Shown in pieces: positions 13,830 through 16,034 of a stretch of DNA of 46,682 nucleotides. Source of the stretch: Nitrososphaerota archaeon (GTDB lineage: Archaea; Thermoproteota; Nitrososphaeria; Nitrososphaerales; UBA213). Position 1 is the stretch's first letter; the number at the start of each line of letters is the position of its first letter. The translations under genes and the position numbers were made by a program. The notes beneath the pieces are model-generated. The model worked only from the letters and a program-made list of their open reading frames with translations. It was not told the DNA's origin and did no database searches. Location: assembly GCA_002713325.1 (NCBI GenBank), contig PAWD01000027.1:1-46682 (forward strand), read 5' to 3'.

Positions 13830-16034
13830 GAATTCGTCTGGTCTTGGCGGTTCTGGACTCAGGCCCTTTCTCTTCCTTACCTCTGTGATTATTGGCATAA
13901 GAAGCGATGATGGTACAGCTTGCCATAATTTGAAATGGGTATTCCATACTGCCTTTCCTGCTGTGCCTCCTCGCATGGTTTCTGCCAAATCAAAAGTTTC
14001 AGATGCAGGTACCTCGCCCAATATAATAGCAATTACACCTTTCTGATCAACATTAATCAGTTTACCACGTTTTCCAGATAATATACCAGCAACAGTTCCA
14101 ATCATATCCGCAGGACACTTTACTTCTATACCTAGTACAGGCTCCAATAATATTGGACTTGCTGTGAGTATAGCACCCATAGCAGCTCTTCTAGTTGCTG
14201 GAAGCAACTGAGCAAGAGTTCTATGCGCAGGATCTTCATGTGGAACATAATGATGTAAAATAATCTTTATACCTCTGCAATGTTCCTGCGCCATGGGACC
14301 GCTTATCATGATATCAATAAAACCAGATTTTATGGAATCCAATGATTCTTGTAAATACTGAACACCTTTAGTTGCATCAACAAACATGTTTCCGCTTTCT
14401 ATCGAGATTATCTTTCTAGCTTCATCTGCATCCCAACCTTTCTCCCGCAAAACCTTCGCTAGTTCTTTCTTGTCCATGTTATCATTTATCTTTCCAGTTC
14501 TTATCATTTCTACCACATCTTCAGCCAGCGGTTCTATCTTTACGAATATCTTATTATGTCTATTTGGTGACTTTGACATTAATGGACCTGCGGTTCCTTT
14601 TATTGTCTCTCTGTAATTGATAAGTGGTTTTGATGTGGTTATTTCCAGACCAGCCTCTTGTAATAATGAAGTAGCGATCTCCAAGTGTAATACTCCCATA
14701 CCCGCCATCAGTGTTTCACCAGTTTCTTCATTGATCTTTACTACAAGGTTAGGATCTTCTACACTAATCCTTCTCAACGTTTCAACCAATTTTGGTAAAT
14801 CCTTTGGATGTTTTGACTCCACAGCCACCGTAATAACTGGCTCGGAGACATACTTGATCGATTCAAATGAGACAATTTTTGGTATGGTTGCTATTGTTTC
14901 TCCAGATCTTGCATGCTCTAACCCCAACAGAGCTGGTATGTTACCTGCACCAAGCGAATTAACAAGCTCCCTATTAGGACCCATAAACATGTTAACGGAT
15001 TGAACTCTTTCCTTTCTATTAGAATCGATGAGATAAACTTCGTCACCGTCATTTATTGTTCCAGAAAACAACCTTCCAACTGCCACGGGGCCAGCCTGTG
15101 GATCAACCACAATGTTTGTAATCATCATGATAACTGGGCCGTCATTGTCACAAGAAACCAATGCTTTGCCAATTTCGGAGTCTAAATCACCTTTCCATAT
15201 TTTGGGAATTCTATATTTTTGGGCTACGTGTGGAGGTGGAAGATGCTTAACGACCATTCCCAAAACTGCTTCATGTAATGGAGCTTTCTCAGCTAGTGTT
15301 GTAGGATCTCCAGAAGTGTATGCCTCATAGACGTCAGTGAAATTAATACCTTTCTTTGCTGCAATACTAGCATTGAATCCCCATTTGTCCTTTGCAGAAC
15401 CAAATGATACACTGTCATTCTGTATGCTAACTTTCCACTTTTCCTTAAATTCAGGTTCGGCATAAATATCGATAAGTTTGTTAAACTCGCTAATTATTCC
15501 GGCCAGCCATTCTTGCATTTTCTCTGGTGTTAATTTCATTTCCTTAACCAAGCGATCTATCTTGTTGATGTAAAGTACTGGCTTTACTCTCTCTTCCATT
15601 GCCTGTCTGGTAACAGTTTCTGTCTGAGTCATAACACCTTCTACAGAATCACAAACAACAAGTGCGCCATCTATAGCCCTTAAACTTCTTGTAACTCTTC
15701 CAGTAAAATCTATGTGACCAGGAGTATCAATCATATTCATAGCGTAGGGCTTACCATCCTCTTCATGGTATAATGTGACGTTGGCCGCATTGATAGTCAT
15801 CTGTCTCTTTTGTTCCAAATCCATGAAATCTAATGCCAATGCTTTACCTGCTACCGATGGACTGATCATACCCGTTGCAGCTAATAAGCTATCACTCATT
15901 GTAGTCTTTCCATGATCTACATGAGCTATAACACCAAAATTATTCGGGTATAAAGAGCTACTTCACACCATTCGAATTTGGTCTTTATTGCCTATGATCT
16001 TTAATGCTTCTTGTGTTGACTTGTAACGTGGCAT
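13815..16034 (-). CDS. fusA: translation elongation factor EF-2, interrupted by a 30-nt putative BHB intron; spliced CDS join(16034..15971, 15940..13815) = 2190 nt, 729 aa
   Basis: Exon 1 MPRYKSTQEALKIIGNKDQIR; exon 2 NFGVIAHVDHGKTTMSDSLLAATGMISPSVAGKALALDFMDLEQKRQMTI...; the ORF-track 694-aa ORF lacks the G1 motif. Confidence 0.9.
15941..15970 (-). other. putative archaeal BHB (splicing endonuclease-type) intron in EF-2 mRNA
   Basis: RNA: ACCAAA-UUCG-AA^U-GGUGU-GAAGUAGCUCUUU-AUACC-CGAA-UA^AU-UUUGGU; contains in-frame UGA; excision restores IR|NFG. Confidence 0.85.

What the first reader, a model, noticed from the sequence alone, without database searches (positions are those of the whole stretch)
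15941..15970. 30-nt bulge-helix-bulge intron interrupting the EF-2 gene
On the minus strand the EF-2 start region reads MPRYKSTQEALKIIGNKDQIR MV*SSSLYPN NFGVIAHVDHGKTTMSDSLL. An in-frame TGA sits between the normal N-terminus and the essential G1 loop. The transcript folds as ACCAAA-UUCG-[AAU]-GGUGU-(13-nt loop)-AUACC-CGAA-[UAAU]-UUUGGU: outer helix, 3-nt bulge, exactly 4-bp central helix (UUCG/CGAA), 4-nt bulge on the other strand, intron helix. This is the hBHBh' architecture of archaeal tRNA/rRNA introns. Cutting after nucleotide 2 of each bulge removes 30 nt (15970..15941) and joins CGAA|AUUUUGGU = CGA AAU UUU GGU (R N F G), the conserved EF-2 sequence. Spliced CDS is 2190 nt (730 codons). 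Translation of an essential factor would then depend on mRNA splicing. BHB introns in archaeal protein genes are rare (cbf5 in Crenarchaeota is the classic case); I do not recall one in EF-2.
Basis: partly seen in the sequence, partly recalled or inferred. Interest (0 to 1): 0.96.

Follow-up and report, generated by a model that had tools for sequence, protein, structure and literature searches.

The report
Splicing-dependent gene for elongation factor 2
In this archaeon, and in about twenty archaeal families of the same phylum, the gene for an essential protein-making factor (EF-2) is broken by a tiny RNA intron that must be cut out by the tRNA-splicing enzyme before the factor can be made; the same trick recurs at the active-site codons of several other translation factors and seems not to have been described.

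Summary
Confirmed and much broader than reported. The EF-2 gene (minus strand, 16034-13815) holds a 30-nt insertion (15970-15941) with an in-frame TGA. The RNA folds into a bulge-helix-bulge (BHB); cutting after nucleotide 2 of each bulge restores I-R-N-F-G and a 729-aa EF-2. This is the only EF-2 copy in the genome. Among relatives, 46 EF-2 genes with insertions were parsed. In all 46, removal at a junction that BHB geometry allows restores the protein. In 44/46 all four central base pairs form in the register set by the protein. 28/46 lengths are not multiples of three (16-63 nt). The helices covary strongly (94% of cells paired; at most 55% when slid). Insertions sit at three sites (plus a probable fourth) within about 15 codons around the P-loop, in about 20 families including Nitrosocaldaceae, whose RefSeq EF-2 is annotated truncated. 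BHB introns also interrupt G1, G2 or G3 codons of aIF5B, aIF2-gamma and EF-1A in other members of the phylum. EndA and RtcB are encoded. No RNA evidence was available. In the papers searched, only cbf5 is named as an archaeal protein gene with such an intron. Verdict: very probably a real pre-mRNA BHB intron; new member of a known kind with a new, recurrent target.

The parts
15971..16034 (-). EF-2 exon 1: MPRYKSTQEALKIIGNKDQIR plus the first base(s) of the Asn codon (CGA A|A.. ambiguity resolved by the BHB cut after CGAA)
   Evidence: matches the N-terminus of uninterrupted EF-2 in relatives
15941..15970 (-). 30-nt BHB intron TGGTGTGAAGTAGCTCTTTATACCCGAATA with in-frame TGA (15965-15963)
15973..15976 (-). 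5' strand of the 4-bp central helix (UUCG), in exon 1
   Evidence: covaries to UCCG in other lineages
15943..15946 (-). 3' strand of the central helix (CGAA), in the intron
   Evidence: covaries to CGGA
15970..15972 (-). 5' bulge AAU, cut after its second base
   Evidence: sequence
15939..15942 (-). 3' bulge UAA(U), cut after its second base
   Evidence: sequence
15947..15969 (-). intron hairpin, 9 bp (GGUGUGAAG/CUUUAUACC)
   Evidence: the six pairs next to the bulge counted across 24 sequences
13815..15940 (-). EF-2 exon 2: (N)FGVIAHVDHGKTT... to the stop; TIGR00490 aEF-2
   Evidence: 848 bits, profile 35-720 when only the 694-aa ORF is read

Best explanation
It is a pre-mRNA BHB intron. The EF-2 gene is transcribed through the insertion; the transcript folds into a bulge-helix-bulge; the tRNA splicing endonuclease EndA cuts after the second base of each bulge; the exons are joined, most likely by RtcB, giving an uninterrupted 730-codon EF-2 message. 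Shown here: the sequence, the fold, restoration of frame and of the conserved residues, conservation with compensatory changes across many families, single gene copy, presence of EndA and RtcB genes. Inferred: the cleavage, the ligation, the identity of the enzymes and that the spliced message is the one translated.
For: Exact borders and fold. Only one EF-2 gene in the genome. 46 interrupted EF-2 genes parsed: in all of them the BHB cut positions are among the junctions that restore the protein. 44/46 form all four central pairs in that register, mean 3.78 Watson-Crick pairs of 4 against at most 1.89 when the strands are slid. For 10 genes the protein fixes a single junction, and 10/10 pair fully. 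28/46 lengths are not multiples of 3. Covariation over 24 distinct site-A sequences: 94.2% of cells paired, 42 cells changed on both sides, score 0.467 against 0.178 shuffled and at most 0.147 slid. The central helix itself switches among UUCG/CGAA, UCCG/CGGA, CAGG/CCUG, GCCC/GGGU, GCGC/GCGU, ACGG/CCGU and CGGG/CCCG. The Arg codon at the junction is CGA in every UUCG- or UCCG-type intron gene but in only 10 of 69 uninterrupted genes, and CGA is 1 of 30 Arg codons in the window's exon 2. EndA alpha in G000; alpha and beta in the sister genome and Nitrosocaldus. RtcB in G000 and 12/12 relatives. Heteromeric alpha2-beta2 EndA is known for Thaumarchaeota (PMC4090602) and the cbf5 precedent is EndA-dependent (PMC2738675).
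Against: No transcript, cDNA or peptide was seen. Only the alpha EndA gene was found in the window's own 84%-complete assembly. The 3' bulge is 3-4 nt, so strictly a slightly relaxed BHB. Intron helices of a few relatives (f12, f17) carry mismatches. BHB-like geometry alone is common by chance. Two f14 genes have three of four central pairs.
Confidence: 0.95

Rival explanations
1. Translational bypassing (gene 60 type): the ribosome hops over the insertion, helped by the hairpin.
For: Short gap with a hairpin and a stop codon; the product would be the same protein in principle.
Against: The Asn codon is assembled from both sides (AA|T) and cannot be read from the contiguous mRNA in Nitrosocaldus, where the 3' side reads GAT (Asp). 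Landing on the only downstream CGA would read I-I-L-V, not N-F-G (sequence). The pairs conserved by covariation are the BHB helices in the splicing register.
Confidence: 0.015
2. The upstream part is dead and translation starts downstream (MSDSLL, 694 aa, as gene callers annotate, or MAHVDHGK as in RefSeq for Nitrosocaldus).
For: Public records list 694-, 705-, 719- and 726-aa EF-2.
Against: The 694-aa form lacks the G1 loop, which an essential GTPase needs. Exon 1 keeps its protein sequence, start and position in all lineages, and insertion lengths vary without regard to frame.
Confidence: 0.015
3. Stop-codon readthrough or selenocysteine, with a 10-residue insert kept in the protein.
For: In the window the insertion is 30 nt and TGA is the only stop.
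Against: In relatives the stop is TAG, TAA or TGA and 28/46 insertions shift the frame.
Confidence: 0.01
4. Assembly error or pseudogene.
For: Single MAG, 84% complete, contamination 4.9%.
Against: Same-site introns with covarying helices in tens of independent assemblies, including the finished single-contig G002; no second EF-2; intact downstream ORF.
Confidence: 0.005

Closest known systems
cbf5 pre-mRNA intron of Crenarchaeota (Watanabe 2002; Yokobori 2009, PMC2738675)
   Same: BHB in a protein-coding transcript, cut between second and third bulge bases, patchy distribution with losses, EndA of the hetero-oligomeric type
   Different: Different gene (translation GTPase, not pseudouridine synthase), different clade, several insertion sites in one gene, and related introns in further translation GTPases
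Archaeal tRNA and rRNA BHB introns
   Same: hBHBh' architecture, size range, presumed processing enzymes
   Different: mRNA substrate; the intron interrupts codons and its removal must restore frame
BHB in the 5' UTR of HVO_1309 (Haloferax; PMC7714728)
   Same: EndA acts on an mRNA
   Different: 5' UTR processing, not removal of an intron inside the coding sequence
P-loop inteins
   Same: Insert in the same GK|TT codons; an intein-like insert sits there in EF-2 of G005 and in aIF5B of G418
   Different: Protein splicing; the present insertion is 30 nt with a stop codon

Membership tests
Archaeal BHB (EndA-dependent) introns | 4-bp central helix flanked by two bulges of about 3 nt at the exon-intron borders | tested here: met
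   window bulges 3 and 3-4 nt
Archaeal BHB (EndA-dependent) introns | Cuts after base 2 of each bulge give the functional product | tested here: met
   I-R-N-F-G restored in the window; protein restored in 46/46 EF-2 genes
Archaeal BHB (EndA-dependent) introns | Helices conserved by compensatory change | tested here: met
Archaeal BHB (EndA-dependent) introns | Splicing endonuclease and ligase encoded | tested here: met
   EndA alpha and RtcB in G000; alpha and beta EndA in the sister genome. The beta gene was not found in G000 itself (84% complete).
Archaeal BHB (EndA-dependent) introns | Intron removed from RNA in the cell | not testable with these tools
   no transcript data; the one metagenome match to a joined sequence is an intronless Nitrosopumilaceae contig
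cbf5 pre-mRNA introns | Located in cbf5 | tested here: not met
   gene is aEF-2 (TIGR00490)
Group I / group II introns | Match to a catalytic intron family | tested here: not met
   no Rfam family at gathering score in the window; 30 nt is far too short
Inteins | Open reading frame through the insert with splicing motifs | tested here: not met
   stop codon inside, frame shifts in relatives
Translational bypass elements | Matching take-off and landing codons that give the product | tested here: not met
   landing on the downstream CGA would give I-I-L-V; Asn codon is split across the junction

The most novel reading that the evidence does not exclude
Short BHB introns have repeatedly invaded the GTP-binding motifs (G1, G2, G3) of the translation GTPases EF-2, EF-1A, aIF2-gamma and aIF5B across the phylum, by a gain mechanism that favours these conserved codons, and have been kept because they tie production of translation factors to the tRNA-splicing machinery.
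Probability: 0.3. Interest if true: 0.95.

Novelty: new member of a known kind. Interest (0 to 1): 0.9.

Why it matters
An essential translation factor would depend on RNA splicing in a prokaryotic domain where mRNA introns are thought to be almost absent (one protein gene, cbf5, in the reviews found). Because Nitrosocaldus is in culture as an enrichment, the claim is testable at once. It also explains truncated EF-2 annotations, warns that marker-gene pipelines mis-start these genes, and offers a comparative system for how BHB introns are gained, move and are lost. A 16-nt example would be among the shortest introns known.

Tried and rejected
A metagenome scan for an already joined sequence, hoping for a cDNA contig, found one contig that is an intronless Nitrosopumilaceae genome fragment. 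A BHB pattern scan alone is uninformative. No tRNA gene and no Rfam match lies in the window, so tRNA introns could not be compared there. EF-1A and aIF5B of the window's own genome are uninterrupted; aIF2-gamma was not found in the assembly. The first covariation alignment (A1) was mis-trimmed, and a second (A2) mixed two structural types and was gapped; only A3 was used. The P-loop interruption of aIF5B in G434 could not be resolved into a BHB. For EF-2 of G497 (site D) a plausible 25-nt BHB was drawn by hand, but its helix has a mismatch and it failed the script's cut-off. The fold of the 17-nt aIF5B intron region of G482 is not better than shuffles.

Full report
OBSERVATION. The minus strand from 16034 reads MPRYKSTQEALKIIGNKDQIR, then ATG GTG TGA, then the rest of EF-2. 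The insertion is 15970-15941, TGGTGTGAAGTAGCTCTTTATACCCGAATA. Without it the frame reads ATT CGA AAT TTT GGT = I R N F G, and the coding sequence has 2190 nt. The genome (53 contigs, 84% complete) has one EF-2 gene.

SAME SITE IN RELATIVES. A search of 60 relatives with the downstream protein showed open frames that end at or just before the P-loop in many of them. Reading upstream showed an insertion at the same phase (CGA AA|T or AGG AA|T) in the sister genus, in all six Nitrosocaldaceae examined (five of one genus, including the finished 1.58-Mb genome G002, plus Ca. Nitrosothermus koennekii, named through contig JACAFH010000001), and in families f3, f4, f11, f12 and f17. Families f7, f8, f9 (Nitrosopumilaceae), f10, f13, f15 and f16 and one genus of f14 are uninterrupted. 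Intron lengths at this site in the order are 16, 28, 30, 31, 37, 42, 49 and 63 nt, so many shift the frame. That f2 is Nitrosocaldaceae rests on the Nitrosothermus contig; G002 matches the 1.58 Mb reported for Ca. N. cavascurensis (PMC5797428) in size only. That paper and PMC7819960 do not mention introns.

OTHER SITES AND CLASSES. Surveys of the class (400 genomes; match listing cut after about 160 rows), of the order of G061 and of the phylum (150 genomes), followed by reading the DNA, gave three sites within about 15 codons, plus a probable fourth. Site A, R|N: 14 families. Site B, inside the Lys codon of the P-loop (HG-AA|A-TT): f6, one genus of f14, and distant f43. Site C, AH|VDHG: part of f32, and f53. 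Site D, after GKTT: f58 (drawn by hand, weaker). No gene was seen with two of them. About 20 families carry an EF-2 intron.

STRUCTURE TEST. For 46 genes the junctions allowed by the protein were computed without using structure. The BHB register was then tested: 44/46 have all four central pairs; mean Watson-Crick pairs 3.78 of 4 against 0.33-1.89 for slides of 1-8 bases; for the 10 genes with a unique junction, 10/10. Where several junctions were allowed, the best-pairing one was taken, which favours pairing somewhat; the 10 unique ones are free of that. 28/46 lengths are not multiples of three. The central helix occurs as UUCG/CGAA, UCCG/CGGA, CAGG/CCUG, GCCC/GGGU, GCGC/GCGU, ACGG/CCGU and CGGG/CCCG. 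On 24 distinct site-A sequences, 94.2% of cells pair, 6 of 10 pairs change on both sides, and the covariation score is 0.467 against 0.178 (shuffled) and 0.147 or less (slid). The loop was cut out so that all rows have one length; the arms were anchored at the splice sites, not fitted to pairing. The Arg codon at the junction is CGA in the UUCG/UCCG types but in only 10 of 69 uninterrupted genes.

MACHINERY. EndA (PF01974) is found in 60 of 61 genomes, usually as two paralogues. The window's genome shows one (C15), with the Y/H/K residues of catalytic alpha subunits by inspection; sister G001 and Nitrosocaldus show alpha and a divergent beta. Alpha and beta match solved EndA chains. RtcB is present. 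Thaumarchaeota are reported to have alpha2-beta2 enzymes (PMC4090602), and (alpha-beta)2 enzymes can cut relaxed BHBs (PMC6379350).

HISTORY. On an EF-2 tree of 78 genes, site A needs 8 changes (at least 3 forced by well-supported branches), B 3 and C 3 (at least 2 each); labels are strongly clustered. Within f32 one close relative lacks the site-C intron. An old site-A intron with repeated loss, plus separate gains at B and C, fits, but the tree is a quick one, the root is arbitrary, and repeated gain at A is not excluded. The window's family groups with Nitrosocaldaceae (f2).

OTHER TRANSLATION FACTORS. A Pfam GTP_EFTU scan and three phylum surveys pointed to further interruptions. Parsed ones: aIF5B between the G2 residues G-[AG]-[IM] and TQHIGA in 17 genomes, 16 with all four central pairs (GCCA/UGGU type and GGGA/UCCU type); two f40 genomes have introns of 17-20 nt at both G1 and G2 of the same aIF5B gene; EF-1A of G477 at GHVD|HGK with a unique junction and full pairing; aIF2-gamma of f56 at G3 (DCPGHE|M, two genomes, full pairing) and of G434 at G1 (three of four pairs). 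For aIF5B and aIF2-gamma the junction was chosen among a few allowed ones by pairing, so these are weaker than the EF-2 test. No other gene families were screened, so enrichment in GTPases is an impression, not a measured fact.

KNOWN OR NEW. PMC7714728 (2020) states that cbf5 is the only reported additional BHB intron in an archaeal mRNA besides its own 5'-UTR case; PMC2738675 says no other gene had been confirmed, though introns in other protein genes had been predicted. Ten full-text searches found no EF-2 intron. Subscription papers and preprints are not in the library, so absence is provisional. Public records of these EF-2 proteins are truncated: 694 aa from MSDSLL for the window, and for Nitrosocaldus a multispecies nr record of 705 aa that starts MAHVDHGK, so annotators did not see the intron.

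VERDICT. A BHB pre-mRNA intron in aEF-2, probability about 0.95, pending RNA evidence. Mechanism as for cbf5. New host gene, wide distribution, and a likely wider pattern in translation GTPases.

Noticed in passing
L004 (G046, Ca. Nitrosothermus koennekii), rc 1443-1459: EF-2 intron of only 16 nt (AGGTTTAACCCGAATA) with a 3-bp, 3-nt-loop hairpin; the whole exon-intron structure still folds strongly (z = -3.9).
   Followed up: partly
L190, L196 (G423, G444; aIF5B): Two BHB introns of 17-20 nt in one aIF5B gene, at the G1 and the G2 motif.
   Followed up: partly
L181-L197 (aIF5B of several families): BHB introns at the G2 motif of aIF5B (G-x-[IM]|TQHIGA), 16 of 17 with full central pairing.
   Followed up: partly
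L167 (G477 EF-1A), L168 (G434 aIF2-gamma), L199 and L200 (f56 aIF2-gamma): P-loop or G3 BHB introns in further translation GTPases.
   Followed up: partly
L031 (G005 EF-2) and L198 (G418 aIF5B): Intein-like in-frame inserts occupy the same P-loop codons (GK|TT or GK|TS) that carry BHB introns in other lineages.
   Followed up: no
window 12883-13137 and 13209-13508, minus strand: Two short ORFs made of NUMOD3 repeats (DNA-binding motif of homing endonucleases) directly downstream of EF-2.
   Followed up: no
window 20683-21549, plus strand: 288-aa HNH endonuclease next to a DUF4186 gene.
   Followed up: no
window 9360-13800 and 22030-24480: Gene-poor stretches with only small ORFs and no Rfam match.
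   Followed up: no
window 15980-16000 with 15920-15935: Exon sequences around the intron extend the outer helix (in relatives GGCAAUA...UAUUGCC), which may constrain synonymous codons.
   Followed up: no
window 27848-36050: Arginine/lysine biosynthesis cluster with two LysX/ArgX-like ligases and argC-, argB-, argD- and argG-like genes (read from the ORF list).
   Followed up: no
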